From Gossypium raimondii (taxonomy: Eukaryota; Streptophyta; Magnoliopsida; Malvales; Malvaceae), in the NCBI RefSeq assembly GCF_025698545.1, contig NC_068569.1, positions 19,654,001 through 19,718,000 of the forward strand: a stretch of DNA of 64,000 bases, read 5' to 3'. A program made the position numbers and the translations under genes. Each line of letters opens with the position of its first letter. The first letter of the stretch is position 1. The notes below the pieces were generated by a model. The model was given only the letters and a program-made list of their open reading frames with translations, was not told where the DNA came from and made no database searches. Positions 1,229 through 47,641 of the stretch are shown here, piece after piece.

Positions 1229-1320
1229 AAATCCACACAGAAGAAAAGAAGAAAAAAAAAAAAGGCCCCGGTGGAGAAACTTATTTACTTTAGGAATTTT
1301 CTAGAACCTTCTCGAAGGCA

Positions 1321-1878
1321 ATGGCTGAGGCGACCAGCACCCAGAGATCCACTGGCACGGTCAAATGGTTCAGCGCCCAGAAATGTTTCGGTTTCATAGC
1401 TCCCGACGACGGAGGCGACGACCTTTTCGTCCACCAAACCTCTATTCTTTCCCAAGGCTTTCGTACCCTCTCCGATAGCCAACCCGTCGAGTTCTCCATC
1501 GATGTCGGTGAAGATGGCCGAGCTAAGGCCGTTGATGTAACTCCTATGCCTCGACCTCGCCGTCCTTCCCGTGGTGGTGGAAGAGGAGGATATTTTGGCG
1601 GCAGAGGTAGAGGTGGTGGTGGTTACAGGAGAGGAGGTTATGGTGGTGGCGGTGGCGGAGGTAGTGGCGCTTGTTATAATTGTGGGAGGACGGGGCATAT
1701 AGCCAGGGATTGTTATCAAGGTGGTGGAAGTGGAAGTACGAGATACAGTAGCGGCCGTGGAGATGGTGGTGGAAATAGAAGATACGGTGGCGATAGCGGT
1801 GATGGACGAGGAGCTGGGGGACGATGTTTTAATTGTGGAGATGAAGGCCATTTTGCAAGGGATTGCCCTAACAAATAA
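1321..1878 (+). CDS. Cold-shock-domain, glycine-rich, CCHC zinc-knuckle RNA-binding protein
   Basis: Single-exon gene of 185 residues. Residues about 10-75 form a cold-shock domain: TGTVKWF, an RNP1-like KCFGFI and an RNP2-like DLFVHQ. A glycine/arginine-rich linker follows, then two retroviral-type CX2CX4HX4C knuckles ([14 protein letters not shown] and [14 protein letters not shown]) separated by a second glycine-rich stretch. This is the layout of plant CSP/GRP2 proteins, which bind and melt RNA or single-stranded DNA in nucleus and cytoplasm and act in cold response and development. The ATG is chosen because it begins the conserved N-terminus directly before the domain. RNP1 carries Cys where the family usually has Gly (KGFGF). 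The family is clear; which paralogue is not. A long open frame on the opposite strand is a shadow caused by the Gly-rich codons. Confidence 0.93.
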
Positions 1879-16672: not shown

Positions 16673-16681
16673 CTAATATAA
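16673..16681. repeat. 9-bp target-site duplication of the MULE, left copy (CTAATATAA)
   Basis: An identical CTAATATAA is at 26374-26382. Nine bases is the Mutator-superfamily hallmark. Confidence 0.88.
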
Positions 16682-16992
16682 TGTTTTTTACCTAAATAAT
16701 ATAAAAAAATTAATTAATTACAAAAAGGTATGGAAAACAGATTAATTACAAAAATAAGCATTTACTATAGTGTTTTGACGATGTCGCCTGACATATTGGC
16801 GGCATCAAATTAAAATGTCACGATCTAAAATATTCAGGGACCTGTCTGTAAATTTCTCGTTTTGATTGGCAAGTGAAAAAAGCTTTAAGGGTGTTGTCTG
16901 AGTTGCGGCATCAAACTTTAAATAGGGTAAATTGTTTCATTAACCCCCTTATTTATTATTTTATTTTATTCTCTTTTAACACAAAAAATAGA

Positions 16993-17386
16993 GAGGCCTC
17001 TTACCAATTAGTCCAAAAAGTTTTTTTCTACTAAAAAGTATTTTTGTAAAAAACTTATTCAACTGAAATAAATTTTATTTAATTTTCAAAAATAATTTAT
17101 TTGCTCAAATTACGTCTAACAATTAACAATATTCATAGTAGTTTTCTTTCATTCACATTATATTTGAAAACTATAAATTTAACTAATAATTATAAATTAT
17201 ACATAATAAAATTTTTCTAAAATTTTATAATTATAATTTATACCGTGTCCGTAAATCAAATTGATAATAAAATTATAATTATTTTTAAAAAAATAAATAA
17301 AATTTATTTTCAGTTGGAATTGGCTTTTTTATCAAAATACTTTTTGGTAGAAAAAAATTTTTTAGACTAATTGGTAAGAGGCCTTT
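16993..17386. mobile_element. Small inverted-repeat element inserted in the left MULE repeat
   Basis: The ends match in inverted orientation over about 90 bases: GGCCTCTTACCAATTAGTC at the left and its complement at the right, then the tttttttctac and caactgaaataaatttta blocks. The right MULE repeat lacks this segment, so it is a later insertion. No protein is encoded. The flanks do not form a simple direct duplication. Confidence 0.8.
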
Positions 17387-17478
17387 CTATTTGGGCAATT
17401 TACCAAAAAAAGCCGTTTTTTTTAAATTTACCGAAATGGGCCGATTTTTTGATTATTTACCGGAATTGACCATTTTCC

Positions 17479-17612
17479 GGGAAATCGCGTCCACGTCAGC
17501 GCGATGTCAGGGTACGTGTCAGGACATCGCGTCCATGTCAGCGCGACCTGCTGACATGGACGCGACGTCTTGCCACGTGGCGCGTTCCCGGGGACGCGAT
17601 TTTGACGCATTT
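17479..17612. repeat. GC-rich subterminal arm with internal palindromes
   Basis: Repeated CGCGTCC/ACGTCAGCGCG motifs in both orientations, for example gcgtccatgtcagcgcgacc against ctgacatggacgcgac, in otherwise AT-rich DNA. It mirrors the right arm at 25806-25960. Confidence 0.75.
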
Positions 17613-17697
17613 TTCACGTTTGGTTTTTTTTTGGCTTTTAAGGTTTAGGGTTTAGGCTTTTTAGGGTTTTTAGGTCCCGGAATAAATTATTTCAAGT

Positions 17698-18046
17698 TGA
17701 CGTTTCTGGTCAAATAGTATAAAATCGCCTCTACCAGGATGCTATTTGAGAAGAAATTGTGAAATTGCGCCATTGTGGACGTGATTTTGCTACAGTAGGT
17801 CATGTAAGAAATATTTTTTTTGACGTTTCTGAGCAAATAGTATAAAATCGGCTCTACCAAGATGCTATTTGAGAAGAAATTGTGAAATCGCGCCCTCGTG
17901 GACACGATTTTGCTACAGTAGGTCATGTAAGAAATAAATTTTTTTTACGTTTCTGAGCAAATAGTATAAAATCGCCTCTACCAGGATGCTATTTGGGAAG
18001 AAATTGTGAAATCGCGCTCTCGTGGACGCGATTTTGCTACAGTAGC
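17698..18046 (+). repeat. Three tandem copies of a ~123-bp repeat upstream of the transposase
   Basis: Copies start near 17698, 17821 and 17945. Each begins acgtttctg, contains agtataaaatcg and gatgctatttg, and ends tttgctacagta; the third is shorter and runs into the probable transcript leader. The agtataaaatcg motif could serve as a TATA-type box in each copy, with the last nearest the gene. That role is inferred. Confidence 0.85.
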
Positions 18047-18146
18047 AAGTTTGGGCTGAGGCTATAAATTAGGCAGAAAATGTTCTTAGAATGCATAAGT
18101 CATAGCAGAAACAATTTAGAGAGGCTAAGAAAGTTAGAGTTTCAAA

Positions 18147-20476
18147 ATGAGTGAACGTATTAGTGCTGTTATTTACTACGATGGTGAGGTTTGCCAAACC
18201 GAGAATTGTGTTGTTTTTTTGTCGGAGAATACGGTGCGACTGTCATTTAACCAGAACATAGATTTGACAGAACTTCGTAAAAGAATTAGGCGTAAAATCT
18301 TCGGAACGACACCAATGAAAGTTCTGTCAATCACGTATCGATTTTATTCTTGTGTTGATCCAGTGACATATGACTCGTTCGACATAAAATGTGCTCGTAG
18401 CTTGGAGGCAATGGTGCAGACTCATCTTGCTAGTGGAGCAACTTATATTGAGTTATATGTACAATTTACGTCGCCAACTGATGTACTTCCGTCATTGTTC
18501 GAGATGTATACACGACCCACAGGTCGACACTCGTGAGTTACAAAATATGGAACGACCCATGTTCGATGGCGATGTCGAATGCATATCCACCGCAAGACAC
18601 TTTGTCCGATGGATGGGACATGTCGTCGGTGGCTCGACGTTTGATCTTTGAAATACGTCTTGGGAAGCGCATCAAGTTCTAGTGGATGGCAATCTACATC
18701 CAATTGGGGACGTTATCAAATGCCCAGAAAAATGGATGACGTACTACCTACGACGTCAACCGGTGAGAGGACGTCGTACGCTGCAGATGATTGTGGGTTA
18801 GAAGATGACTCCGATGTGAATCCACCTCGAGAGCCCAGGCCGGATGGTGCAGAAGTGAGATTATTTTCTGAACCGGAGTCGATTCCAACAAAGGGTGAAT
18901 ATGCTGAAAGGAGTTCAGATGAAAAAGAAAATCCACGATTCAGAGCATACTCACCTCCAACCCACATGCATAATGTCGATCTGTCAACGGATGATGCTTT
19001 AGAGTTGCCAGATCTACCATACCAGTTGCGCGATCGTACAAGTTTGGGGGTAGATTTCGGTGAACTTGAAGTTGGTAATCAGTTTACTAACAAAGATAGT
19101 TTTATTGGTGCTTTGAAATAGCATAGCATCAAAAACGGCGTTAATTACCACGTCGTTAAATCAAAATCTGATAAGTTTGAGGCGAAGTGTGTGGTGCAAG
19201 ACGACACATGTTCATGGAAAATCGTCGCCTTGTTAAGGAAAAGGACAGGGTTGTGGGAGATAAAAAAGTACAAAGGTCTACATACATGTGCTGCAGGTAC
19301 CTGATTGAATGTATCTGAATAATAATTTTATTTTGCAATGTTGTATTATTTAATGTACTCCCTCTGTAGGTGTTTCACAAGATCATCCCAAAATGGATTC
19401 AACTATGTTAGCTAGCTTGATACTGCCCACGATAAAAGCAGATCCTAGGACTTCAGTACCGGTGATAATTGCCAATATCCATAGCCAAATGGGGTACACG
19501 CCTTCTTACATCAAGGCTTGGATAGCTAAGCAGAAGGCGTTGGAGAAGATGCATAGTGGGTGGGACGCTTCATATAATGAAATATGGCAGTGGTGTCAGG
19601 TGATAGAGAGATACGTCCCAGGTGCCATCACAGACCTTGAAACGGAACATGCGTACTACAACGGCCGATTGCTACGTGGATGCCAAGTGTTCAAACGCCT
19701 ATTTTGGACCTTTAAGCAATACCGAGATGCATTTCCATACTGTAAGCCGTTGGTACAAATTGACGGTACCTTCATGTTCGGTAGGTATACTCATCGGCTA
19801 TTGGTTGCAGTGGCACAGGACGGCGGTGGGAGAATTCTTCCAATTGCATTTGCAATAACACTGGGGGAGTCGTCTAATGACTGGGATTTCTTTCTCTCGA
19901 GGTTAAGGAAACCTGTGTGCCCCCAACCTGATATCTGTGTTATTTCAGATCGGGACACCGATATACTAGCTGCATTTGATCGAGAGGGAAGCTTGTGGCA
20001 GCGCACACACCATAGATATTGCCTAAGACACGTTGCTTCGAACTACTACAGGCAATATCCATCTAAGAGCGAACGACGATAAGTGACCAACATGGGTATT
20101 TAGTCTATAACTGTATTATTTCGTTTGTCAATTTGAATTTGTTTTATTGGTAGAAGTGGTATAAAATATTCGCTATGATCTTATATTGGCAGGGTATGAA
20201 ATAAATAAAGATCGTTTTGTCGAGATGTTGGCAATTTTACGATCCCAAAACGGAGAAGGGGCAGACTACCTTTGTAACATACGTTTCGAACAGTGGGCAC
20301 AAGCATACGACGGAGGCCTACGATATGGCCATATGACGTCGAACCTGGCAGAATACATAAATTCTGTTCTTAAAGGAACGCACCATCTACCGATAACATC
20401 GGTTGTGCGAGAGACATATTTCCTTTTGGCGGCGCTATTTCCAAAACGAGCAGCAACTTATGCAGTCCAGGGTTAG
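18147..20476 (+). pseudogene. MuDR-type MULE transposase gene, 3 exons, truncated and interrupted
   Basis: The reading starts at MSERISAVIYYDGEV and runs, with breaks, to 20476. Exons end and start at 19296/19370 and 20095/20193 (GT-AG). Domains in order: an N-terminal ubiquitin-like/PB1-like region (18147-18536), an acidic linker (18648-19000), a MuDR DNA-binding domain with Cys/His ligands (19020-19296, ending KYKGLHTC), and the MULE catalytic domain. Within the catalytic domain VQIDGTFM holds the first Asp, CVISDRD the second, and NLAEYINSVLKGTH the Glu. Damage: a frame break near 18537-18648, TAG at 19119-19121 and TAA at 20080-20082. The protein ends at AATYAVQG, without the SWIM zinc finger and C-terminal knuckle usual in this family; the telomere-like repeat starts exactly there. 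Confidence 0.88.
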
Positions 20477-20960
20477 GGTTTTTAATTAAGTTAGGGTTTT
20501 TAATTAGGTTAGGGTTAGGGTTTTTAATTAAATTAGGTTAGGGTTAAGGTTTTTAATTAAGTTAGGGTTTTTAATTAAGTTAGGTTAGGGTTGGGTTTTT
20601 TAATTAAATTAGGTTAGGGTTAGAGTTTTTAATTAAATTAGGTTAGGGTTAGGGTTTCTAGGGTTTAGGATTTTTAATTAAGTTAGGTTAGGGTTAGGGT
20701 TATTAATTAGGTTAGGGTTAGGGTTTTTAATTAAATTAGGTTAGGGTTAGGGTTTTTAATTAAATTAGGTTAGAGTTAGGGTTTTTAATTAAGTTAGGGT
20801 TTTTAATTAAGTTAGGTTAGGGTTAGGGTTTTTAATTAAATTAGGTTAGGGTTAGGGTTTTTTGGGTTTAGGGTTTTTAATTAAGTTAGGTTAGGGTTAG
20901 GGTTTTTAATTAAGTTAGGGTTTTAAATTAAGTTAGGGTTTTTAAATAAATTAGGGTTTT
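20470..20960. repeat. Telomere-like minisatellite (TTAGGG plus TTTTTAATTAA units)
   Basis: About 490 bases built from units of roughly 18 and 29 bases, each joining TTAGGG or GGTTAGGGTTAGGG to TTTTTAATTAAGTTA or TTTTTAATTAAATTA. It resembles, but is not, the Arabidopsis-type telomere repeat TTTAGGG. It separates the 3' ends of the two convergent MULE genes. Confidence 0.92.
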
Positions 20961-23114
20961 TATTACATCAAATTGAACTTCTATTTTATTATATTAAATA
21001 AACTTATATTTTATTACATCAGATAATAAATTTAAATACGGCAATCAATGTCTATGCCCGGGGGATTCGGTTCCACATGGCGGCCGTCGACGGTTATGCG
21101 CTAGATTCCTCCTTCCTCTAGCTTTCGGGGGCGGTTGTTATTCCTCCGGTGGTGATTGTGGTTCTTCTGGTTCGACATCTGGTTGTCGGACTTGGGACGA
21201 TGATCCACCTTCAAAGAATAGTGTATGTGGAGGTGTTTGAATCATGAACGGTGACGGTGTTTGAAAGCCATATGTTGGTGGCGAGTGGTAAAAAGGAGAG
21301 CTCCTCGACGGCCCCCCTTGCGATCCCTCCTGCGTCGCTGGCCTAGATATTGGCGGTCCGCTCAGCATAATAGGAAATAGAGCTGAACCGAACATTTGGC
21401 TCCAACCTGCCATAGGATTCGGAAAAGGATACATGTAAGGGTTAGGGTACATATAAGGGCTAGGAACCACACCTGGCATCATAGGGAAAGGCGTTTGCGT
21501 GGGTATCATCTGTTGAATTGCTGCGTCAGGTGACTGCGTCGGTGCTCTCGTTGGGGACGGTGATTGCATGGCCGCTGATGATGAGCCGGGTGACTGTCTG
21601 GGCCTCGTTGAGGGGCTGCCTTCGTAGTCTTCTCGTCTTGGATTTAGAGGCCCGCGCCTTTCCCTTCCGACACGTATTTGCCGCTGCCTCTCCTCTGGCG
21701 TAAGTAAATACGGCTTGCTATGGATCCTAAACCATGGCATGTATTCTGGAACGCACGCTAACTCCGGAACGATGATTTGTTCCCGAGTAGGTAGATATTC
21801 ATGCTGATTTTCCCATATTTTCGTGTACTCAGACGAGTATCTAGGCCAATCCGTACCTAATAGCTGAAGGTCGATTTTGTGGTGATCGTCAAACACTTCA
21901 GGGTCCGCAGGAATCGGTTGTCTACATCCAAACTGTCGTAGCACTCTGTCTGTCTGGTGGGGCTCCACGGTTGCATAGTTGATCAACACCACTTTCGCGT
22001 GCCAAGCGTTTGGATTTTGTAAAAACTCTTCCGAGATTACTGCCCGAATTGCCGGGTCCTCGTATGGTGTCCATTGAAACTATATGAATATGATAGAAAT
22101 ATTAGTTATATACATAATACTAAATACTAAATACTAAATATCAATCGACTAGCGAATGTATGAAAATATCTATTTGTAATAATACTTACTTCTGCTTCCG
22201 ACCATTGCTCCAATAGAAGCCGTATATCTTCAAGTTCAGACGGTAATCCACGATAACTTGCCGGATGGTTCCACCTAATTAAATAAATTTTTAGCATACT
22301 TTTATTCTTACAAAATCTACATAATAATTCCAAAATTTAATATAAAATTTACCTCGTTATGAGTGGGAATGTATATGGGTGGTTCACTCGAGGACGTAGA
22401 AATGGAAAGCGAAACCGTGCCCATGATTGCAGTAGTGACAGGCAACCTCCGATGTTTGCTCTCCTCGGTCCCGTCGCCCCGCACATCTCCCAATATAATG
22501 TTGCTAAAACGGCAGACGCCCAACTAAATTCACCGACTCCTCTAAAATCAACGAGTTTTAGCAGCCACCTTAGATGTACACGGCTCCGTGTTGTGTCGGG
22601 CATCAGATAACCTCCAATTATTTGAAGAATGTATGATCGAGCATATTAGATTCTTTCAATTTCGGTTGAATTTGCATTCGGATCAAGGAAGGTGTCACGT
22701 AACCAACCCATCTCGACCTTACCTCCATCCATTTTATCCGGAATAGCGCCCAAAAGCTCGTAGCACACCGCCTCCCAATTGCTAGATTAAGCAGACCCGG
22801 TGACTTGGCGCCCGTCCACCGACAATCCCAATTGCAGATGGACATCTTCTAGAGTGATAGTGCACTCTTCACATGGAAGATAGAATGTGTGCATCTCGGG
22901 TCTCCACCTCTCGATCAATGCACTGGTCAGTTTCGGGTCCAACTTGCATCATCGGCCTACCGTCGCCACGTGCCAGAAACCCGCTTCCCGCAGGTAGTTC
23001 TCTACTAACAGTGATGGAGGAGCATGCATATTCCGGATATTGCATTCCAATACCCGATCTTCAGACTTTTATAACAAATAATAAATTAATAATTATCTAA
23101 AAATACATAAATAA

Positions 23115-23119
23115 AAAAA
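23115..23119. repeat. Target-site duplication of the solo LTR, left copy (AAAAA)
   Basis: AAAAA also follows the element at 25445-25449. The site is A-rich, so the match is less informative than for a mixed sequence. Confidence 0.6.
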
Positions 23120-25444
23120 TGTAATACCCTGAAAATCTTTAAGTAAGATATTATCTTTGATATAATAAAATAAGAAAATAAAGCGTCAAAAAGGGGAATT
23201 TTGGAGTTATGTCAACATTGGGTCGTATATTATGAGATATTAGTTCAAGAAAGGATTAAATCGTAAAAGTGAGAAAAGTTTTGTTGCCCAAGAGTAAATA
23301 CTCAAAAATTAAAGGGTTAAAGTGTAAATATGAAAAGTTGAAGGACCAATGGTGTAAATATTTTAAGGGTGGAATGATCTAGAAACTAAGAAAAATGGAT
23401 GGATTAGGACCAAATTGAAAAAGGTGAAGAAGTTTGAGGGACTAAATCACAATTTTACCAAATTGAGTGATGACTCAAGATGGAATTTTAAAAGATCATG
23501 AAGGGCAAAATGGTCAATTAGAAGAGAGAGAAATCTAGAAGATAATGATGATGTTGGAGATATTTTAGATTAAATAAATAAATAAATATTAGTTTATTAA
23601 TATTTTGATTTGATTTTTAAATGATATGTTATTATTTTATTATTTTAATATTTAGTATATATATATATGTGGAAAGAAATATGAGAGGGATGAAACCCAC
23701 CATCTTTTCCATGCAATTCACGTTAGAAGAGAAGAGAAGAAAGAAAGTTTTACTTTCTTTACAATTTAGTCCTTCCACCAAAAATTCATCATTTTTATCT
23801 AGAAATCAAAAGAATTTCCATATCCATCAAGAGAGAAAGATAACAAGGAGACTATGGGGAGCTAGAATATTAAGTTAGATTCAAGAAATAGAAGCTGGAG
23901 GAGAGAGAAAATCAAGTTAAAGATTGAAATCAATATGACAAGGTAAGTACATCAAGATTTTAATATATTTTTAAGTTTGATATTATTGAAAAAGCATGGA
24001 AATGATGTTAATGTAAAGTTTTGTATATATGGTCCTATGTTCTTGATATGTTAGTGAAGAGAAAATAAGAGAAAGTGATGAGAAATAGTGTAGAGAAAGA
24101 AAATAAGGGTGTTATAAACATGGTAATAAACATCTTGCACCAAAATGGTTTTGGACAGTAACAGTGGGCTCACTTTGAAAAATCACCATAAATTATGAAA
24201 ATCGAATTAGAGTATGAATAAAATATATAATTAAATCTTATTGAGTCTAATTTCTCATAAAAGAAACGGTGTAAGTAACGGAATTGTAAATTATGAGATA
24301 TAATAAATTTTGTGAGACAAGGTCAGAATGAATTCAGGTTTCCCTGTTCTGAATTGGAAAAATCATTAAAAATTGTACAAAAATATTTATGGGTTACAAT
24401 TTATATGTTTAAAATCCTTAATGAGTCTATTTTCAATAGAAACAAATGGGGACATCATCCGAATTCTGAACAAAGAGATAATTAATTTTTAGTGAAGAAG
24501 GGTCGGAATTGTCAGACAACAGAACAAAGGTGACTTTAAAGAATAAACTGTACTTATTGGCTGAACCAAAAATTCTGAAACTTTTATGGTAAGAAGGTAT
24601 GTGAGTCTAGTTTCAGATAAAATTAGCGGATCCTAATTTGGAGTTCCGTAGCTCAAGATAAAAATAATTTAGTGGCTATGACTCAAATGGACAGCTTTGA
24701 ATAAATTTACAAGTAAATTGTGAAATCATAGATAATGTTACTTCTAAGCATGTATTATAAATTAAGGATGTGGAATGGAGAGGAGGAGGAGGAGGAAAAT
24801 ATATATATGAATATTCAGTTAGCATGGATAACTTGCACGTTTTAGACTCAGGGACTAAATTGAATAAAAGTAAAACTTTAAGGGTAAATTTGTAAAAATG
24901 TCAAAAAGTGAACAAATTGCATGAAATGAATTGTTTTATTATTTAAATTAGTAAATGGAATGAAATATTAATTTAGATCAAGATTGGGTGAAAATTTGAG
25001 AAAATAGAAAACTTCCAAAATATCCACAATTTTGGTATTTACGCAATTTAGTCCAGTAAGCTCGAATGAGCTATATTCGTAATAATTTTAATTGAAGTGA
25101 ATGCTATTTGGTAATGAAAATTATATATATGTGTGTATTATTATATGTAATATATATAATTATTTGATACATTTAGCTGATTATTGGAAGCTAAATTGAG
25201 TTGGAAGCTTGTTGGAGATATATCACAGTATCCGTTGGTTCTATCGATAATTTTGGATGATTTGATTCTGGTTATAATGGCATGTATAAGTTAAATTGGT
25301 TAACGTTAGCTCATTAATGTATTGATTTTGATTGGTTATAAATATGAAAGCTAGATAAAAATGAAATGTCTGAAAATTAATTAGTAAACTCTGGTAATGC
25401 CTCGTACCCTATTTTGGTGTCGAATACGGGTAAGGGGTGTTACA
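23120..25444 (+). mobile_element. Solo LTR, TGTAATACCC...GGTGTTACA family, in PMD intron 1
   Basis: Starts TGTAATACCC and ends GGGGTGTTACA, with a 5-base flank duplication. It is highly similar to 33764-37458 over its first 1.8 kb and its last 250 bases, but lacks most of the 1.7-kb middle of that copy. No PBS, gag or pol adjoins, so recombination between LTRs left one copy. It has a TATA-like tatatatatatgtgg near 23660 and a donor-like aaggtaagta near 23940. Confidence 0.88.
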
Positions 25445-25486
25445 AAAAATCTTAAATAATATTTAAAAATTAAATTTAATACTTAC

Positions 25487-25546
25487 CATTTTCATTTGCT
25501 CCACCGATATGTGATTCCTATCAAGACGAATTAATGATCCGGCCAT
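25487..25546 (-). CDS. First coding exon of the PMD gene
   Basis: Twenty codons, MAGSLIRLDRNHISVEQMKM, ending ATG|GTAAGT. It lies over 2.4 kb from exon 2 because of the solo LTR in the intron. It is too short to detect as an open frame and was found from the conserved family start. It belongs to the PMD pseudogene entry. Confidence 0.8.
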
Positions 25547-25805
25547 TGATGAAAATATAAAAAAATTTAAAATTATTTTTAAAAAATATTAAAAAATTTA
25601 AAATTATTTAAAAAAATGAAATTGAGGGGAAATTGAAATTAAATATGGATTTGAGAGAATTTTGGAAGGAAATTGAGAGGATTAGAGAGGAAAAATTAGA
25701 TAGGATTTGTTTGTGAAAAAAAATAAAGGGGTGGGGGTATTTATAGTTTTTTTTTAACCGTTGGGGGGGCAACGGTCAAAATTTTGACCGTTAGGGTACT
25801 GTTCA

Positions 25806-26373
25806 CGCGCGGCCTACATCGCTTCCACGTCGGTAGCGACTGGCGACGTGGAAGGAAATCGCGTCCCTCGGGACGCGATTTCCTTCCACGTCGGCAGTCG
25901 CTACCGATGTGGACGCGATGTCCTCGACATCGCATTCGACATCGCTACGACGTGGACGCGATTTCCCGAAAAATGGCCCAATCCGGTAAATAATAAAAAA
26001 ATCAGCCCATTTCGGTAAATTTTGAAAAAACACGACTTTTTTTGGTAATTTGCCCTTTCTATTTTCGGTGTTAAAGGTGAATAAAATAAAATAATAAATA
26101 AAGAGGGTTTATGAAGCAATTTACTCTATTTAAAGTTTGGTGTCACTACACTGTCAGGCGGCACCCTTAAAACCCTTTTTTCAACTGCTAATCGAAACGA
26201 AAAATTTATAAATCAGGTTCCTGAATATTTTACATCATGTTTTAGTCTGGTGCCACCAATATGTTAGGCGACACCGTCAGAACTCTGTAGTAAATACTTA
26301 TTTTCGTAATTAATCTATTTTCCATACCTTTTTTGTAATTAATTATTTTTTATATTATTTGGATAACAAAGCC
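25806..26373 (-). repeat. Right terminal inverted repeat of the MULE
   Basis: Inverted partner of 16682-17612. It keeps the block (about 26050-26080) that is interrupted by the small element in the left copy. Confidence 0.85.
25821..25916. repeat. GC-rich near-perfect palindrome in the right subterminal arm
   Basis: Arms of about 46 bases flank a 2-base centre at 25868-25869 (gcgtccc|tc|gggacgc). They include ttccacgtcggtagcgact on the left and its near-complement on the right. The density of CG is far above the window average. Confidence 0.88.
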
Positions 26374-26382
26374 CTAATATAA
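26374..26382. repeat. 9-bp target-site duplication of the MULE, right copy (CTAATATAA)
   Basis: Matches 16673-16681 exactly. Confidence 0.88.
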
Positions 26383-33763: not shown

Positions 33764-36700
33764 TGTAATACCCCAAAAAATTTTACAGTAAGATATTATC
33801 TCTGATATAGTAAAATAAAGAAATAAAGTGATAAAAAGGGTAATTTTGAGTTATGTCAACATTGGGAAGTATATTATGACATATTAATTCAAGAAAGGAT
33901 TAAATCGCAAAAGTGAGAAAAGTTTTGTTGCCCAAGAAAATTTGAGGGGTTAAAGTGTAAATACGAAAAAATTGAAGGACCAAATGTGTAAATATTTTAA
34001 GGGTAGAATGATCTAGAAACTAAGGAAAATGGATGATTATGACCAAATTGAGAAAGGTGAAGAATTTTGAGGGACTAAATCTTAATTTTACCAAATTGAG
34101 TGATGACTCAATGATGGAATTTTAAAAGATCATAAAGGGAAAAATGGTCATTTAGAAGAGAGAAAATCTAGAAGATAATGATGATGTTGGATATATTTTA
34201 GATTAATTAAATAAATAAATATTAGTTTATTAATATTTTAATTTGATTTTTAAATATTATTTTATTATTTTATTATTTAGTATATATATGTGGAAAGAAA
34301 GATGAAAAGCCACCATTACAACATCTTTCCTATGCATTTCACGTTAGAAGAGAAGAGAAGAAAGAAATTTTTGCTTTCTTTACAATTTAGTCCTTCCACC
34401 AAAAATTCACCATTTTCATCTAGAAATCAAAAGAATTTCCATATCCATCAAGAGAGAAAGATAACAAGGAGACTATGGGGAGCTAGAATATCAAGTTAGA
34501 TTCAAGAAATAGAAGCTGAAGGAGAGAGAAAATCAAGTTAAAGATTGGAATCACTATGACAAGGTAAGTACATCAAGATTTTAATATATTTTTAAGTTTG
34601 ATATTATTGAAAAGTATGGAAATGATGTTAATGTAAAGTTTTGTATATATGGTCCTATGTTCTTGATATGTTAGTGAAGAGAAAATAAGAGAAAGTGATG
34701 AGAAATAGTGTAGAGAAAGAAAATAAGGGTATTATAAACATGGTAATAAACATCTTGCACTAAAACAATTTTGAATGTAAATAGTAGGCTCACTTTGAAA
34801 AATCACCATAAATTATGAAAATCGATTTAGAGTATGAATAAAATATTTAATTAAATTTATTGAATCTAGTTTCTCATAAAAGAAATGGTGTAAGTAATGG
34901 AATTGTAAATTATGAGATATAATAAATTTTGTGAGACAAGGTCGAATGAATTCGGGTTCCCTATTCGACTTGGAAAAATCATTAAAAAGTGTAATAAAAT
35001 AATTATGGGTTATAATTTATATGTTTAAAATCCTTAATGAGTCTATTTTCAATAGAAACAAATGGGGACATCATCCGAATTCTGTACAAAGAGATATTCA
35101 CTTTAAAGAATAAACTGTACTTATTGGATGAAACAAAAATTTTGAAAATTTTATGGTAAGAAGATATGTGAGTATAGTTTCAGATAAAATTAGAGGATCC
35201 TGATTTGGAGTTCCGTAGCTCAAGATAAAAATAATTTAGTGACTATGACTCAAATGGACAGCATGTTATATAAATTCAGGACGTGGAATGGAGAGGAGAA
35301 GGAGGAAAATATATTAATATTCAATTAGCATGGATAATTTACACGTTTTAGATTCAAGGACTAAATTGAATAAAAGGTAAAATTTTATGGGTAATTTGTA
35401 AAAATGTCAAAAATGATCAAATTGCATGAAATGAATTGTTTATTTATTTAAATTATAAAATTGAATGAAATTTAGAACAAGATCGGGTGAAAACATGTTT
35501 TAGGGATTAAATTGAAAAGTGTTGAAATTATGAAAAATTCTGATATCTTATAGAATTCATGGTTTGTTATCAAAATGTATGGGAATAATTAGGTTTAAAA
35601 CAAGGACTAAAATTACAATAATTTATTTTTCTGAGCCCAAGGATTAAAATCGTCATTAATTAAAAGTTTAGGCGCAAGATGGTAATCTTGCCTAGAGCAT
35701 TAATTGAATATATCAGAATATGAAATGAATGAAAACGATGATCAAATTTGTTTAGAAAGATCCGAATGACTCAAATACAAGACTTGAATGTGGAAAAGAA
35801 AAGACATCGGATTAGTGAAATTGTAAACACGAACAAGTAACGAGGTAAGTTCGTGTAACTTGAATTATATTTTTAAATGCTTGAAATGCTTGTTATTGAT
35901 GTGAATATGATTTGAATGTTCATTGTATGAAAATTGATGAAACAGTGATATATTTGATAAAAAGGGGAAGAAATTCTGGTTGAATGGATGGAAAATTCGA
36001 TGGATCTCTGAAAAGGAATTGAAGGTAAAAAGGATCTAGCCCGGACGGGTGATCTTATCCTGATATAGCCCTCTCGAAGAATATGTGTGAAAAAGATCTA
36101 GCCCGGACTGGTGATCTTGATATAGCCCTCCCGAAGAATATGTGGAAAATGGATTTAGCCCTGGACGGGTAATCAATTAGGTCTCAATTTAGCTCGATGA
36201 TAATTCGGATCCAAGCTCATTAGAGTAATTGTCGTTGCGAGGATTTAGCTTTGACTGGTAATCCCGACAACACTCGATGAGTTTATATTACAGGGGATTT
36301 AGCCTGGACTGGTAATCCTACTGTAAGGAATGAGGTTCGCGGGAGTGTGCTCTCTGAAATGGAAATGTGTGCACATGAATATGAATTGACGGACCCGGAA
36401 TTGTACACTAAAAGTGTACATCTGAAAAATCCATCGAATTTCTAAGAAATTCAACGGGATAAATATGGGAAATAATAAGGGTAATAGAAAACATGAAATT
36501 GAATTATTATTGGTATTGATCTTAAATAAATATAACCATTGATATTTAAATGATATAACGGGTAAAGTTCTAAAGTGAGATAACATGAATTTGAAATGAA
36601 CTATTACTGGTATGTACGAAATTCATGAAAATGATGGTACATGAAATATCGAAATAGTGAAATGAATGATATATGTCTATGAAAAACGACAAGAGAATGA

Positions 36701-37458
36701 TATATATCATGACATGTAAATGTATGATTATCTTTAATATGTTGATGCAAGAAAATTATGCATGATGAGTTTGTATGTAATGTGTGCAAGTAAACTAACT
36801 AGTATTATTGCTTGATGCTTAGGCAAGTGCCAAGCTATTGGTTGAATGGTATTATGATAATTTATATAATGCATTGAATTGGAAAGTATTTAAGTGAAAA
36901 TATGATAGCGCTCACTAAAAAAAATGGTAGGGTTTAGATTATACAATTTCTTATGAAATAACTTATCATGTGATCAATTCGAAAAAGACTTTGGAAATGC
37001 ATTAGCTTGTGACTGTGGTTAAATGAAATGTTTATGACTTATGTGTCACGCATATGGAATAAGCGTGGAAAGTAAAGAAATGCAAATGAAAATAAAGAAA
37101 TTATGAAAAGTTAAGTTATATAAAATCTTACTAAGCATTCATTGCTTACACATTTATTTATTTATTTATTTATTTACTCTACAGATTATCAAAAACTCAA
37201 TTGGTTTGGAAACTTGTCGGAGATATATCACACTATCCATTGGTTTTATCGGTAATTTTGGATGATTTAATTCTGGTTATAAAGGCATGTATAAGTTAAT
37301 TTGGCCAACGTTGGCTCATTAATGTTTTGATTTTGGTTGGTTTCAAATATGAACGTTAGATGAAATGAAATGCCAAAAAAAAATTTAAATTAATTTGTAA
37401 ATTTCGGTGATGCTCCATAACCCTATTCTGACGATGGATTCGGGTTAGAGGTGTTACA
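33764..37458 (+). mobile_element. Long LTR copy, TGTAATACCCC...GGTGTTACA family, mismatched flanks
   Basis: The first 1.7 kb matches 23120-24950 and the last 260 bases match the end of that copy. The middle (about 35461-37160) is extra and contains a repeated gatttagcc(c)ggac(t/g)ggtaatcc motif. Flanks are ATTAT on the left and CTTGT on the right, so there is no target duplication; either the copy is a recombinant or a flank was lost. No internal retrotransposon genes adjoin. Confidence 0.75.
36025..36325 (+). repeat. Imperfect tandem motif array inside the long LTR
   Basis: About five occurrences of tagcccggacgggtgatct or the related tttagcctggactggtaat lie 50-80 bases apart. The role is unknown; such arrays are common in long gypsy LTRs. 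Confidence 0.7.
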
Positions 37459-41185: not shown

Positions 41186-43705
41186 TGTAACACCCCTTAC
41201 CCGTATTCGACACCGAAATAGGGTACGAGGCATTACCACTTGTAAACGTATTTAACCAAGTTATAAAATTTCATCTAAATTAAAACTTTCAAAATTATTA
41301 ACATGCTTTTATAACTCTTCACAATATATCCTCAAAATATTTTAATCATAATAAATAGGGCCTACGAGACCCGATACATACTCATGCAATTCAATGCTTC
41401 ATTTCCATTTCATTCACGTACAATTCAATGTCATTAAGTTCAATACTAATACGTATTTACCATTTAACTCAACGTATATCAATTATATCATTCGTTAACA
41501 CATTTATGAAATTCTCAATTTTGTAATGAAAATATCATTCTAGCTTAAATAACGACATCAATTCAACTCATCATCCCCTTTTTCGTCATTTTATCCTTCA
41601 AGTATGAACTTACTATTTCGTTACCTTTCCAAACTTGTTCCTATGCATATTACACAAAACATAAACATATCATTACAATGCATAACTTATAAGTTTAACG
41701 TGGCATAATTCAGCCACAACTTGGCCAAAGCCTAAGCATGTACACCAAACATATTAGTCAAATAAACATATAGCATAAGCATTATAAGCATGGATGAGCA
41801 CAACATTTATTCACGTATCAAACTTACCAACATGTGTTAATTCATAAACCATTCATGACATTACTTCATGCCAAATCATATACCAGATATATCATACATA
41901 CATACTATGAAACTTTATTTTCCCACATGAGTTTAAACCATGACCAATAATGCACAAATATAAGCATCATTTCTATTTCATCATTTATCAATTATAATCG
42001 AACATATAACCAATTATACACAATTCATTCATATCTATTTTCCCGCTCCTCCTCTTCATTCCACATCCTTAATATATAACACACTCAATTATCATTATCC
42101 AAAATTTCACTATTTGCTCATATGTAAATTCAAAGCTGTCTGCCTGAGTTAGAGTCACTAATTATTTATATCTCGAGCTACGGAACTCCAAATTAAGATC
42201 CGTTAATTTTCCCCAAAACTATACTCACATATCTTATTACCATAAAAATTTCAGAATTTTTGGTTTAGCCAAATAGTACAGTTTATTCATTAAAATCTCC
42301 CCTGTTTCACTGTTCAACAGTTTGGGCCACTCTTCACTTAAAATTAATTATCTCATATTACAGAATTTGTATAATGTTGTCATTTGTTTCTTTTGAAAAT
42401 AAACTCATTTAGGATTCTAAAAATATAAATTTTAGCCCATAATTATTTTTTTACAATTTTTGATGATTTTCCAAAGTCAGGACAGAAGATTCCGAAATCA
42501 TTCTGACCTTGTCTCACTAAAATTTAAATATCTCATAATATAAAACTCTTTTGCTTTCTCTGTCTCTTTTATGTGAAAATAAACTCAATAAAATTTTATT
42601 TCATTTTTTTTATCCTCTAATTCAATTTCTACGATTTTTAGTGAATTTTCAAAGTCAGACTACTGTTGCTGTCTAAAACTGTTTTAATGCAAGATGTTGA
42701 TTACTAAATTTATAACTCCCTTATTCCTTTTCTCTATAATATTTCCTATCACTGTCTCTTATTTCCCTTCACTAATATATCAAGAACGTAAGACCTTATT
42801 TAAGAAAACTCTACTATAACATCATTTCCATACTTTTTCAATAATATCAAACTTAAAAATATATTGAAATCTTGATGTTCTTACCTTGTCCAATTAGTTT
42901 CAACCTTTAACTTGATTTTCTCTCTCCTCCAGCTTCTCTTTCTTGAATCTAACTTGATGTTCTAGCTTCCCATAGTTCCCTTGTTATCTTTCTCTCTTGA
43001 TGGCTATGAAAATTCTTTTGATTTCTAGGTAAAAATGGTAAATTTTTGGTGGAAGGACCAAATAGTAAAGAAAGCAAAATTTTTTTTCTCTCTTCTTCTC
43101 ACGTTGGATGCATGGGAAGATGATGATTTCTTTTCATCTTTCCTCCATTTTATATTAATCATTTAATAATAAAATAATACTAAAAATCTTAATAAAATAT
43201 TAATTAAATAACATTTATCTAATTAATTAATTAAAAATATCACCAACATCATCATTACCTTCTAGAGTTCTCTCTCTCTAATTGACCATTTTACCCTTCA
43301 TAATCTTTTAAAATTCCACCCTTGAATCATCAATTAATTTGGTAAAATTGCGATTTTGTCCCTCAAAATTCTTCACATTTTCAATTTGTTCCTAATTCAT
43401 CCATTTTCCTTAGTTTCTAGATTATTCTACCCTTAAAATATTTGCACTATTGGTCTTTCAATTTTTTCATATTTACCTTTACCCCCTCAAATTTTGAGTA
43501 TTTACTCTTGGTTAACAAAACTTTTCTCACTCTTGCGATTTAATCCTTTCTTGAATTAATATATCATAATATACTTCCCAATGTTGGCATAACTCAAAAT
43601 TTCCCTTTTTGTCACTTTATATCCTTATTTTACTATATCAAGGATACCTAATTTCTTATTATAGTAGTTTTCGGGTATTTCAGTAGTAATTTTCGGGATA
43701 TTACA
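41186..43705 (-). mobile_element. Solo LTR, TGTAATATCCC...GGTGTTACA family, TSD ATACG
   Basis: On the minus strand it begins TGTAATATCCCG and ends AAGGGGTGTTACA. ATACG stands on both sides (41181-41185 and 43706-43710). Blocks such as ccttccaccaaaaatttacc and gaaagataacaaggg are shared with the copies at 23120 and 33764, in opposite orientation. No PBS or coding part adjoins. Confidence 0.9.
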
Positions 43706-43938: not shown

Positions 43939-46575
43939 TTATCTGGGGCCTGAGATTTGTTGTGAAGAGATATACGAAAGGCATGTATTTGAACCACTTG
44001 TATTTTTACTACTACGAGTAGCATTATCTTGTTGAAAAAACACGAAATGAGCATCGCTTTGCCTATTATCCCCTTCTGCCATGGAAGCCTCTGTAAATGT
44101 GCGGCCATAATAGCGCAAAAAGTTCAAGGATTCCACTCTAGGCTGACCTAAAGGAAGCCCACCTTCCAACATCCCAACAACAGCAGCCATGCTTGGCCGA
44201 AGTGCAGGCTCCTCGTGAACGCAACATAAAGCGATCCGCACTAGTTTCTCCACTTCGTTATTGTTTACTCGCTCCTCGAGTCTCGGATCTGCCAGCTCCA
44301 AGTATCTGCCCTGTTCATGCATCTCGAGTGCGAATAATGGGAAATAAACCAATCCCGCTACCGATGACGTTGAGGAGTTGTTGGCTCCGCCACTGTTGGT
44401 TTCATTGAATGTATGCCTGATTGATTTTAACGAGCAGTTTTTCCTGCCGCTCACCAATTCAAGCAGTACCATCCCGAAACTGTAAACGTCGGTTTTTTCG
44501 GAAATGGCGGAGTTTGTAAGCCATTCCGGCGCTAGATAACCTCGAGTGCCTCTCATTGTTGTGAAGAGACTTGATTGTTCAGGTGTTAGAAGCTTTGAGA
44601 GCCCGAAATCGGAGATCTTTGCCTGGAAATGATCGTGTAAGAGAATGTTTTCTGGTTTAACATCACAATGAATGATCTTATGTTCGCAGCCGCCGTGCAA
44701 GTATGCGAGCCCACGAGCAGTCCCAAGTGCTATATCGAACCTCTCTTGCCATTCCAAGGCTGGACCAATGCCGAAAAGGGATCGATCGAGGGAACCTCTG
44801 TTCATATACTCATAAACCAAAAACCTTTGTCTCCCATGGGCACAAAAACCTCTCAGTTTAACCAAATTGACGTGGTGAATGTTTCCAATGACTGCAATTT
44901 CAGTGCAGAATTCTTTTTTCCCTTGCGTGCCTGGATTTGTTATCTTCTTCACTGCAACAACAGTTTTGTCAGGGAGCGTGCCTTTGTATACTGCACCAAA
45001 GCCACCTGATCCGATTTGGGTCTTGAAATTATGAGTGGCCAATTCAATTTCTTCGTAATTGAACTTTTGGGGCAAGCCTGGAATGTAAAACCCATCGAGA
45101 TCGTCCGACGAGACTGAGTTTTGGTGGCCTAATTTTAACTCTTCAGTTTTGTTGAATTTCCATCTTTTCGACCAGAAAAAAACTAGAGCAGCTAATAGGA
45201 AAACGCCGGTAAAAGGTAAGAGCACAGCGGCAGCTGTTGGGAACTTTTTCCTTTGGTTGCTAATACCATTGTCGCCATCGGGATCAGTCGAAGTAGGTCC
45301 AACAAGTACTTTAACATACCCTTGAAGATCATTTGCACCGGTATCGCTTAATATAATGGACCCTAATTCATTTTCAAGCACGTAGCAAGAACCAGAAGAA
45401 TTTTCGTGGAAAACTCCCAAGCAAGCACAGTTCCCCGTGCATACATCTTGACAAACTGAGAAATTTACACCGTATATATCAGGCTGAGAGAAAACAAGAG
45501 AAAAATACTGCATACCAGAGCCTAGTTTGATATAGGAAACATCCGAAGAATTTGACTCGCTAACGCTGACATTTTTGGTTGAATCACAAGCAGTGGGTAG
45601 AGAGTAAGAACGATCATTTGGCAGACACCCACCAATATTTTGTGAAGCTGAACGAAAACCAGAGGGGCATGAACAAGTGGGGGAATTTGAGGTTGATTCA
45701 CGAGTGCATAATCCCATTTTGCCACAGTTTGTTGGAATTTGACAATTATCAATAGGGCCAACAAATTCCTGAACCCATTTGCCACTAGAGAAACTACTTA
45801 CAGAGAACTGACCTGAAGAACCCAGCTTGGCAATCCGGAAGTTGGTCGTCGACAAGTTAACCCGAATGACAACAGCCGATCCATTACGACCAAGGAGATA
45901 TAGGCCTGTTTTGTTTATTGCCATGTACTCGACATCATAGCTTGAGTCCACATAGGCCTTGGTATCCATGGACAGTTTCCAAAACGCCTGTTTATACCAT
46001 TGCAATATTGCATCAGAAGCTGTAACCGTGAACCTGTAATCACCGGTCGACAAGTTACTTTCCGAGACAGCACTCGACAGATTCGCCCCGACCGAAAGCC
46101 GTTGTCCGAACACAATTGTATCCGTCGGATAACGGAAGCTTTCCCAAAGAGAAGCATTGAATTGATCGAGCAAAACGAGATTGCCCATCTCAGTCAACAC
46201 CAACGCGTGAACCGTTGCTTTTAACCGTGGAGTTGACCATTTGAGATGACCATCTGAGTTAACAATGCTAATTCCTTGGATTGTAAGACCCATTTCGCCA
46301 GAGCTGGAGATGGGAGAATCACGATTGGCTGACCAGATGATGGTGTTGGATTCAACGTGTATGATGCATAAATAAAAGTCGGTTTCCTGAGCTTTGGGAT
46401 TGTAGATGGAAGCTTTGAATGTTCCATTACGAGAGAACAAGAAGGCGCCATTGTCGTTGATAAATTGAAAGTGTGAAGCAGTGAAGTTTGGGGAGATAAA
46501 TTCCGTGAAAGAAACCCCGGAGACGGAAAAGGGATAGAAATTAAGGAGACCGATAAGAAAGAATAAGGATCCCAT
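43939..46575 (-). CDS. G-type lectin S-receptor-like serine/threonine protein kinase, intronless
   Basis: Intact 878-residue protein. The start MGSLFFLIGLLNF at 46575 is preferred over in-frame codons upstream because it begins a signal peptide. Order: signal peptide (1-22), mannose-binding bulb-type lectin (about 28-155, with the SANRDSP and FRYPTDT motifs), EGF-like Cys cluster (278-317), PAN/apple domain (about 330-425), membrane helix (447-468), kinase (521-803). The kinase has the glycine loop IGSGGFGAVY, Lys543, HCDVKPEN with Asp638, DFG at 656-658 and APEW. The residue before Asp638 is Cys, making it a non-RD kinase, a type often linked to immune receptors. It is expected in the plasma membrane. 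It resembles the At5g35370 group; the ligand is unknown. Confidence 0.93.
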   Translation of the reverse strand: MGSLFFLIGLLNFYPFSVSGVSFTEFISPNFTASHFQFINDNGAFLFSRNGTFKASIYNPKAQETDFYLCIIHVESNTIIWSANRDSPISSSGEMGLTIQGISIVNSDGHLKWSTPRLKATVHALVLTEMGNLVLLDQFNASLWESFRYPTDTIVFGQRLSVGANLSSAVSESNLSTGDYRFTVTASDAILQWYKQAFWKLSMDTKAYVDSSYDVEYMAINKTGLYLLGRNGSAVVIRVNLSTTNFRIAKLGSSGQFSVSSFSSGKWVQEFVGPIDNCQIPTNCGKMGLCTRESTSNSPTCSCPSGFRSASQNIGGCLPNDRSYSLPTACDSTKNVSVSESNSSDVSYIKLGSGMQYFSLVFSQPDIYGVNFSVCQDVCTGNCACLGVFHENSSGSCYVLENELGSIILSDTGANDLQGYVKVLVGPTSTDPDGDNGISNQRKKFPTAAAVLLPFTGVFLLAALVFFWSKRWKFNKTEELKLGHQNSVSSDDLDGFYIPGLPQKFNYEEIELATHNFKTQIGSGGFGAVYKGTLPDKTVVAVKKITNPGTQGKKEFCTEIAVIGNIHHVNLVKLRGFCAHGRQRFLVYEYMNRGSLDRSLFGIGPALEWQERFDIALGTARGLAYLHGGCEHKIIHCDVKPENILLHDHFQAKISDFGLSKLLTPEQSSLFTTMRGTRGYLAPEWLTNSAISEKTDVYSFGMVLLELVSGRKNCSLKSIRHTFNETNSGGANNSSTSSVAGLVYFPLFALEMHEQGRYLELADPRLEERVNNNEVEKLVRIALCCVHEEPALRPSMAAVVGMLEGGLPLGQPRVESLNFLRYYGRTFTEASMAEGDNRQSDAHFVFFQQDNATRSSKNTSGSNTCLSYISSQQISGPR

Positions 46576-47641
46576 CAGAGGTGGGGGAAAAGAACTCAAC
46601 GATGGAGGCCTTGTTGATGATAATGGCGGAACTGCTATGGTTTTCTTTATTTGTTTTTTTTTTCCTTCGTGCTCAGCAGGCGTTGACCAATGAAGGTGCA
46701 CACTGAACAAATCCAGATTAATAAAAGTAAAATCAGTTTCATTTGATGTTAACAGCAACTGGGCATGTAAGATAACGAAACATTGCCGGTCAAAGCCAGT
46801 GAAATGTTTGTCTATGATTGTTCCCATGGGTTGAAATAAAATCATATTTATATGAACTAATATTGATTGATTAATAGTTAAAGTGATAATATATTTAAAG
46901 TTCTACCCAAGGAGTAAAATCATAAGCTACTAAACAATTTGGATTCGATATCAAAAAGAAAAAAAAAATGGTGGGTGAATAAAAATATTTTACATTAAAA
47001 AATATATTAACAAATGGTTATTAGTGAAATAATAAAGATTTTTATATGAATTGTTGGTCTTGTATTTGATTCTCAAATAATATTTTTAATTATTTTATTT
47101 GAACTTTATGTAAAAGCATGAAAAATATGAAAATACTCTTATAATAATATTAATTTTCTTTTTAAGCAAGGGCATTTTAGCAATTTCACAGTTAAGTTGG
47201 TGCTGAATTGACTTATGACACCAATTCAGTCTACCATTTTATACATAGTATAGATAAAATATAAAATATAAAAATAATATTTTCATTAATAGTGTTACCC
47301 TTATTATCACAACTAATTAGACTCCGAATACATATTAAGTTATGCTTGTTATATTTAATTATCACTTAATGTTAATAAGGCCTTGGCATAATTGACAATG
47401 GCGGAAGTTTTGGTTTTTGAGTCTCAAGGTTGGAGACCTATTATACGCAATTAAATGTACGAGTCTTTGATCCCCACCATGAACTATTATTATGTGTGGG
47501 TTTTAATCCATTTAGTTAGTACGTAATCTAGATTATTCCAATTTGTAGTTTGTTTGTGCTGAGATAATTTAATTCTTTTTTTTTTGGTAAATAATGAAAC
47601 ATTAGCCAAGGGTAAACTGTACTAGTACCAATCTTCAACTA
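46576..47641. other. Upstream region of the lectin kinase gene and AT-rich intergenic DNA
   Basis: Bases 46576-46900 are probably the leader and promoter. Nothing else is recognised. Confidence 0.4.

What the first reader, a model, noticed from the sequence alone, without database searches (positions are those of the whole stretch)
16682..26373. A 9.7-kb MULE that carries a plant-mobile-domain gene convergent to its transposase
The sequence shows a perfect 9-bp duplication, long inverted ends, a MuDR-type transposase on one strand and a four-exon PMD gene on the other. PMD genes are known as both host genes (MAIL1/MAIN group) and transposon passengers. Finding both genes between one pair of ends, with family-typical exon structure, suggests a stable two-gene element, comparable in outline to maize MuDR with mudrA and mudrB. 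Inference: the PMD protein may serve the element, for example by counteracting silencing, rather than being a chance capture.
Basis: partly seen in the sequence, partly recalled or inferred. Interest (0 to 1): 0.78.

Follow-up and report, generated by a model that had tools for sequence, protein, structure and literature searches.

The report
Two-gene cotton transposon inside another transposon
This is a jumping gene in cotton that carries, besides its own transposase, a second gene related to plant gene-silencing factors; in the copies sampled the pair is nearly always together and both genes bear the mark of selection, so the second gene probably helps the element rather than being a stray passenger, although elements of this kind had been listed before.

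Summary
Both genes are real: a MuDR-type transposase and a convergent four-exon plant-mobile-domain (PMD) gene. The 9-bp duplication and inverted ends at 16682/26373 belong to an outer ~1.02-kb palindromic element that also exists alone. The two-gene MULE is nested in it: 17393-26055, TIRs of ~170 bp, its own perfect 9-bp duplication. This copy is dead: both genes are broken, the transposase lacks its SWIM/CCHC end, and a 2.3-kb insert sits in PMD intron 1. The family is large (at least 127 PMD and 150 transposase places in this genome). Of 20 loci chosen by transposase alone, 19 have convergent PMD sequence. PMD copies show purifying selection (N/S 0.59 of neutral in exon 2, 0.76 in exon 4; transposase pieces 0.45-0.76); out-of-frame dN/dS is 0.96-1.21 overall. 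But antisense PMDs in plant MULEs were tabulated in 2019, in a group that includes Gossypium raimondii: a new member of a known kind. Lead: PMD faintly resembles DUF1985 of the VANC anti-silencing proteins.

The parts
16682..17392 (.). Outer element, left part: left arm, loop and the start of the right arm of a ~1.02-kb almost fully palindromic (foldback-type) element; host of the nested insertion
   Evidence: Stand-alone copies elsewhere; joined flanks align across the junction in 7 of 7 fetched loci
26065..26373 (.). Outer element, rest of the right arm
16673..16681 (.). Target duplication CTAATATAA of the outer element, left copy (right copy 26374-26382)
   Evidence: sequence
17384..17392 (.). 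Target duplication TTTCTATTT of the inner two-gene MULE, left copy (right copy 26056-26064)
17393..26055 (+). Two-gene MULE (inner element), 8,663 bp, ends GGGCAATTTACC / GGTAATTTGCCC
   Evidence: the end sequence is found at one or both ends in 8 of 8 full relatives; complete pair with duplication in L042 (9/9) and L046 (8/9)
17393..17560 (+). Left terminal inverted repeat of the inner MULE (about 168 bp, 84% to the right one)
25885..26055 (-). Right terminal inverted repeat of the inner MULE
17697..18066 (+). Three units of a ~123-bp tandem repeat just upstream of the transposase; at least one unit in 9 of 9 full copies, two or more in 7 of 9
18147..20476 (+). Broken mudrA-like transposase gene: N-terminal part (weak PB1-like match, below cut-off), DBD_Tnp_Mut (19122-19304), MULE/DDE exon (19354-20082), exon 20165-20476; C-terminal SWIM and CCHC part missing
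20470..20990 (.). 29-bp minisatellite (GGTTAGGGTTTTTAATTAAATTA type) between the two gene ends; arrays of this type lie in the same place in 8 of 8 other full copies
21138..22079 (-). PMD gene exon 4 (end of the PMD domain and a proline-rich tail)
22188..22277 (-). PMD gene exon 3
22358..23067 (-). PMD gene exon 2 (most of the PMD domain); broken here (3 stops in frame), open over 239 codons in L018 and L044
23120..25444 (.). 2,325-bp insert TGTAATACCC...GGGTGTTACA (solo-LTR-like by its ends) in PMD intron 1; absent from intron 1 of L018
25487..25546 (-). PMD gene exon 1 (MAGSLIRLDRNHISVEQMKM, then a GT donor)

Best explanation
It is one dead copy of a large cotton family of MULEs that carry two convergent genes, a mudrA-like transposase and an accessory PMD gene, nested in the arm of an unrelated ~1-kb foldback element. 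Shown: boundaries, nesting, two genes in nearly all sampled copies, an average of purifying selection on both genes. Inferred: the PMD protein was kept because it helped active members to spread; most likely it interferes with the host silencing that its host relatives (MAIN/MAIL1 type) uphold, either as a competitor in their complex or as a targeted anti-silencing factor in the manner of VANC.
For: Nesting and true ends. Association: 19 of 20 transposase-selected slices hold at least one PMD exon piece (E up to 1e-5) on the opposite strand; 8 of 8 full loci, which were picked because both genes were listed near each other and with few stops. Selection: pairwise dN/dS exon 2 0.67 (95% codon bootstrap 0.54-0.80), exon 4 0.79 (0.68-0.97), other frames 0.96-1.21; neutral placement test on 200 random pairs 0.59 and 0.76; transposase N/core/C-term in 9, 9 and 8 copies 0.76/0.59/0.45; PMD in the nine full copies 0.56 and 0.72; the same nine by dN/dS, PMD 0.65 and 0.79, transposase 0.79, 0.58 and 0.58. 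Weakest on the nearest disjoint pairs (exon 4 N/S 2.44 against 2.43 neutral, exon 2 1.71 against 2.29), as expected if copies decay after insertion while the active line is constrained. Literature lead for the role: MAIL1/MAIN silence TEs and MULE PMDs were suggested to act against silencing (PMC5418596, passages; PMC8616336, passages).
Against: No expression, binding or methylation data. The proline-rich tail of PMD is nearly unconstrained (0.88 of neutral; dN/dS 0.86, interval 0.68-1.09). Copies share branches, so pairs are not independent, and '0 of 200 placements' (reached in all nine tests, even the tail) is not a probability. Out-of-frame controls vary by bin from 0.78 to 1.69; the closest-pair bin of exon 4 in frame 1 is 0.78 (0.65-0.93), so single bins can stray below 1 without function. 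1 of 20 slices (L058) had no PMD; L064 is rearranged and L057 keeps only an exon-4 piece. The sample comes from the 150 best-scoring transposase places, not from the whole family. Most exons examined carry stops: 6 of 39 exon-2 and 7 of 50 exon-4 rows are stop-free with at most 10 gapped codons. The motif of VANC21 (YAGTATTAY) is not repeated in the element: one per copy in 9 of 9.
Confidence: 0.8

Rival explanations
1. PMD is a passenger: a host gene fragment caught once and copied along with the transposase, with no function for the element.
For: MULEs are known to catch host genes; the exon 4 tail is nearly neutral and the nearest exon-4 pairs are neutral.
Against: 19 of 20 retention and constraint on the PMD domain in the range of the transposase (0.56 of neutral for exon 2 in the nine full copies, 0.61 for the domain part of exon 4). 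Only 30-35% identity to the host gene L005, while relatives in Hibiscus and Lupinus are at 44-53%, so no recent capture from that gene.
Confidence: 0.12
2. The PMD protein serves transposition itself (for instance integration, as is said of maize mudrB in PMC6446971, passage), not anti-silencing.
For: The layout of two genes in one TIR-MULE with a helper of unknown role is that of maize MuDR; nothing here measures what the protein does.
Against: Its relatives among host genes act in silencing (PMC5418596, passages); faint resemblance to DUF1985 of VANC.
Confidence: 0.3
3. One reading: a single 9.7-kb MULE with ends at 16682 and 26373.
For: Perfect 9-bp duplication and long inverted ends at these places.
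Against: The outer sequence forms a stand-alone ~1-kb element in 7 of 7 fetched loci and the joined flanks align across the junction; 8 of 8 two-gene relatives give no match to the outer ends; the inner ends have their own perfect duplication.
Confidence: 0.01

Closest known systems
Plant MULE groups with antisense PMD (groups 42, 47-50 of Dupeyron et al. 2019, PMC6446971, Table 1; MUDR group 50 contains a Gossypium raimondii sequence)
   Same: 9-bp duplications, TIRs of tens to hundreds of bp, SWIM-bearing transposase, PMD on the opposite strand
   Different: The place of this family in their tree was not tested; the passages read give no copy counts, nesting or selection test for the PMD
PMD-C carrying MULEs of grasses and Amborella (Ikeda et al. 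2017, PMC5418596)
   Same: A MULE with a PMD; anti-silencing proposed
   Different: Described there as fusions with the transposase; here a separate convergent gene in a eudicot
VANDAL elements with vanA/vanB/vanC (Hosaka et al. 2017, PMC5735166)
   Same: MULE with an accessory gene; 9-bp duplications (table of PMC6446971); tandem repeats in non-coding parts; DUF1985-like signal in the accessory protein
   Different: VANDALs lack TIRs or have short degenerate ones (PMC6446971 passage; its table gives 46-174 bp for the group); no VANC21 motif array here; the DUF1985 signal is below the curated cut-off
Maize MuDR (mudrA/mudrB)
   Same: Two genes in one TIR element; long TIRs and 9-bp duplication are recalled
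   Different: Homology of mudrB to this PMD was not tested
Host PMD genes (MAIN, MAIL1, MAIL2, MAIL3)
   Same: PMD domain; the intron before the ...W.PY... motif is at the matching place in the host gene L005 (by eye)
   Different: About 30-35% identity to L005 only; other introns differ; TE-borne and in many copies

Membership tests
Mutator-like elements (MULE) | MULE-type transposase domain with MuDR DNA-binding domain | tested here: met
   PF10551 E 4.3e-13, PF03108 E 7.4e-6
Mutator-like elements (MULE) | 8-11 bp target duplication | tested here: met
   Window 9/9, L042 9/9, L046 8/9, L044 7/9; L039, L040, L041, L043, L045 gave no convincing pair, partly because an end was degraded or outside the fetched stretch
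Mutator-like elements (MULE) | Terminal inverted repeats | tested here: met
   149-241 aligned columns, 84-92% identity in window, L042, L044, L046
MULE groups with antisense PMD (Dupeyron 2019) | PMD gene antisense to the transposase in the same element | tested here: met
   8 of 8 full loci, chosen for both genes; 19 of 20 transposase-selected slices
MULE groups with antisense PMD (Dupeyron 2019) | Transposase falls in group 49 or 50 of their tree | not tested
   Their alignment was not at hand
PMD-C | Nearer to MAIN/MAIL genes than to PMD-B or Gypsy PMD-A | tested here: inconclusive
   Profile of TE-type PMDs scores 228 bits on L005 and under 30 on L001-L003; the tree sets L001-L003 apart by a long stem but its deep inner nodes have support of 40-80. 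That L005 is MAIL2-like and L001-L003 are PMD-B is my recollection, not a call; no PMD-A was included
VANDAL | No or only short degenerate TIRs | tested here: not met
   TIRs of 149-241 aligned columns at 84-92%
VANC anti-silencing proteins | DUF1985 domain | tested here: inconclusive
   18 of 43 TE-type PMDs match at E up to 1, best 1.3e-4; host L005 1.6e-3; 6 of 10 looked at singly match, in one register; scores shown are below the curated cut-off; no DUF1985 match at E 0.001 in this genome, and that search rang in no control genome either, so it shows no absence
Pack-MULE | No transposase of its own | tested here: not met
   Transposase in 8 of 8 full loci and the window
Maize MuDR | mudrB homologue | not tested
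   No mudrB sequence was at hand

The most novel reading that the evidence does not exclude
The PMD gene of TIR-MULEs and vanC of VANDALs are branches of one superfamily of MULE-borne anti-silencing genes: PMD and DUF1985 share a fold, the domain is held by selection while the tail varies, and the protein acts on tandem repeats in the element's own non-coding parts (the 123-bp units before the transposase, the 29-bp minisatellite between the genes). Host MAIN/MAIL silencing factors would then be the tamed side of the same protein family.
Probability: 0.18. Interest if true: 0.8.

Novelty: new member of a known kind. Interest (0 to 1): 0.42.

Why it matters
It turns a suggestion in print (TE-borne PMDs as counter-silencing genes) into a case with numbers: a high-copy family in a sequenced cotton in which the PMD is kept and constrained about as much as the transposase. 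It shows too that the outer ends were those of a different element, a warning for calling MULE ends by duplication alone. If the link to VANC held, one mechanism would cover the accessory genes of two big plant transposon groups.

Tried and rejected
Single 9.7-kb element: rejected. A 400-bp MITE in the left TIR (first thought from the 68-bp inverted pair 16986-17392): rejected, it is the loop and inner arm of the outer element. Structure of the PMD protein: the model of P0057 is poor (mean pLDDT 54.8) and no PDB match reaches E 0.001. VANC21 motif arrays: none. Cotton DUF1985 proteins for a profile comparison: no match at E 0.001. IQ-TREE codon models printed no omega. Binning pairs by their own dS biases the ratio; replaced by binning on the other exon. 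Print on selection of TE-borne PMDs: searches listed 3 and 4 papers of the open library; from titles, abstract starts and the passages read in PMC7156037, PMC8616336, PMC11152179 and PMC5418596 I saw no such report; PMC4583175 and PMC9289625 were seen as listings only. Literature searches gave mostly noise.
Full report
What was claimed. A 9.7-kb MULE at 16682-26373 with a transposase on one strand and a PMD gene on the other, both between one pair of ends, perhaps with PMD serving the element.

Where it is. The window is a stretch of a 751-Mb genome in 281 contigs. The named proteins among the 120 best hits listed for PMD exon 4 are from Gossypium, and several contig lengths of the genome (for instance those of C6, C8, C10, C11) equal those given for G. 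raimondii proteins, so the assembly is most likely G. raimondii (inference).

The genes. Pfam finds DBD_Tnp_Mut (E 7.4e-6) and MULE (4.3e-13) on the + strand, and PMD (5.3e-18 and 3.5e-11) in two exons on the - strand. The PMD gene has four exons, with GT and AG at the junctions looked at. In the window both genes carry stops and frame changes, although the central transposase exon is open. Other full copies have a transposase tail with a SWIM-like and, in L039, a CCHC-like pattern (read by eye; Pfam gives SWIM in a cotton relative, P0206). The window lacks it: after ...TYAVQG a minisatellite begins. A 2,325-bp insert with LTR-like ends lies in PMD intron 1.

The ends. Eight full loci were fetched. 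They were chosen because the lists showed both genes close together, with few stops, so they do not test association, but they do test the ends. In 8 of 8 the outer end sequence gave no match; the inner end sequence was found at both ends in four and at one end in four. The inner pair GGGCAATTTACC/GGTAATTTGCCC bounds 8,663 bp in the window with a perfect 9-bp duplication, 7,368 bp in L042 (perfect) and 7,075 bp in L046 (8 of 9). L044 has both ends with 7 of 9; L039, L040, L041, L043 and L045 gave no convincing duplication, in part because an end was degraded or outside the stretch.

The outer element. The 711 bp from 16682 to 17392 give 99 matches, with 40 of 325 candidate places scored. Seven fetched copies (L068-L074) are 0.89-1.03 kb long, and the joined flanks of the inner element (1,020 bp) align across the junction in 7 of 7; the joined sequence is 78% complementary to itself over nearly its whole length. 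Duplications of the stand-alone copies were sought with ends free to move by up to six bases, and even so only one is perfect, three have one mismatch and three have two or three, so they carry little weight.

Do the two genes travel together? The transposase exon has at least 150 places at 85-100% identity (150 scored of 3,597 candidates); PMD exon 4 at least 127 (127 scored of 3,476, 128 matches); both counts include the window. From the transposase ranking I took about every eighth place, 20 in all (one moved to its neighbour because it was already held, the last one from the end of the list), and read only the 2 kb where PMD should lie. At least one PMD exon piece on the opposite strand was there in 19 of 20; L058 had none, L057 only an exon-4 piece, and L064 is rearranged, with inverted transposase pieces beside the PMD. 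In G. stocksii a PMD protein and a transposase bear consecutive locus tags, J1N35_023270 and J1N35_023271.

Selection. Of 55 distinct places (L009, L026, L033 and L034 dropped as duplicates) 54 had PMD; 39 gave exon 2 and 50 gave exon 4 at 70% coverage or more, the others were dropped. On the 37 with both, dN/dS is 0.67 for exon 2 (0.54-0.80) and 0.79 for exon 4 (0.68-0.97), and 0.96-1.21 in the other frames. By divergence of the other exon, exon 4 falls from 1.04 in the closest pairs to 0.74 in the farthest; exon 2 runs 0.70, 0.72, 0.71, 0.65, 0.57. The other frames mostly move the opposite way and range from 0.78 to 1.69 by bin, so single bins should not be leaned on. Stop-free rows alone give 0.63 (6 copies, exon 2) and 0.83 (7 copies, exon 4). 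A neutral control that places the observed changes at random in matching CG/CHG context gives observed/expected N/S of 0.59 (exon 2) and 0.76 (exon 4) on 200 random pairs of each, 0.61 (domain part of exon 4), 0.88 (tail); transposase N-terminus 0.76, core 0.59, C-terminus 0.45 in 9, 9 and 8 copies; PMD in the same nine 0.56 and 0.72. In each test 0 of 200 placements reached the observed value, but pairs share branches and this is no probability. Disjoint nearest pairs (19 and 25) are neutral for exon 4 (2.44 against 2.43) and less so for exon 2 (1.71 against 2.29). This is the pattern of a gene constrained in the active line and free in dead copies. No branch-wise model could be run.

Where the PMD comes from. 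A profile of TE-type PMDs scores 228 bits on the host gene at L005 and under 30 on L001-L003. Identity of TE-type PMDs to L005 is 27-36%; the Hibiscus proteins are at 46-53% and the Lupinus ones at 44-45% to the cotton copy L018. One intron, before the ...W.PY... motif, matches a host intron; the others differ (by eye). So the capture is old, or its donor was not this cotton gene. Whether the Lupinus and Hibiscus PMDs sit in MULEs was not tested. The names MAIL2-like for L005 and PMD-B for L001-L003 are recalled.

What is known. Ikeda et al. 2017 (PMC5418596, passages): PMD first described with a rice MULE; PMD-C caught twice by MULEs, in grasses and Amborella, as fusions; anti-silencing proposed. 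Nicolau et al. 2020 (PMC7156037, passages): eudicots hold mainly genic PMD-C. The Cells review of 2021 (PMC8616336, passages) repeats the counter-silencing idea. Dupeyron et al. 2019 (PMC6446971, table rows and passages): PMD antisense in group 42, sometimes antisense in 47 and 48, often in 49, in most of 50; group 50 includes a G. raimondii sequence. So the arrangement is in print, and this family may even be the one they had; this was not checked.

A lead. 18 of 43 TE-type PMDs match DUF1985 at E up to 1, best 1.3e-4, and 6 match DUF7745; among ten looked at singly six match DUF1985, each in its C-terminal half and against the same part of PMD; the host gene L005 matches too, 1.6e-3. The scores shown are below the curated cut-off. 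DUF1985 is marked in VANC proteins (PMC5735166, figure legend), whose targets are often tandem repeats in non-coding parts (passages). This element has such repeats: a ~123-bp unit before the transposase in 9 of 9 copies and a minisatellite between the genes. Against: the VANC21 motif is not repeated here.

Verdict. Observation partly confirmed, interpretation partly supported: a real, stable two-gene MULE family with a constrained PMD, wrongly bounded in the finding, of a kind already listed. The role against silencing is plausible and untested.

Noticed in passing
window 16682-17392 and 26065-26373: A ~1.0-kb, almost fully palindromic element family with 40 scored places of 325 candidates in this genome, mostly near 80% identity; the source of its transposase is unknown.
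   Followed up: partly
window 23120-25444, 33764-35493, 42023-43682: The 2.3-kb solo-LTR-like insert in the PMD intron has two long relatives (85% and 82%) elsewhere in the window, on different strands, and shorter pieces at 37152-37458 and 41186-41238.
   Followed up: no
window 20470-20990 and the same place in L039-L046: Telomere-like minisatellite (TTAGGG within a 27-29-bp unit with TTTTTAATTAA) between the two genes of the MULE, about 41 units in L041.
   Followed up: partly
A1 proteins and L005: PMD proteins give repeated sub-threshold matches to DUF1985 and DUF7745, hinting at one superfamily.
   Followed up: partly
window 1294-1878 +: Intact-looking ORF that reads as a cold-shock domain plus CCHC glycine-rich protein (by eye).
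   Followed up: no
window 43939-46902 -: 987-codon open frame that reads as a G-type lectin S-receptor-like kinase (by eye).
   Followed up: no
Hibiscus syriacus P0175, P0178, P0189, P0194, P0218: Database proteins in which PMD or MULE parts are joined to ordinary enzymes (by their names or Pfam domains), probably gene-model fusions over TE insertions.
   Followed up: no
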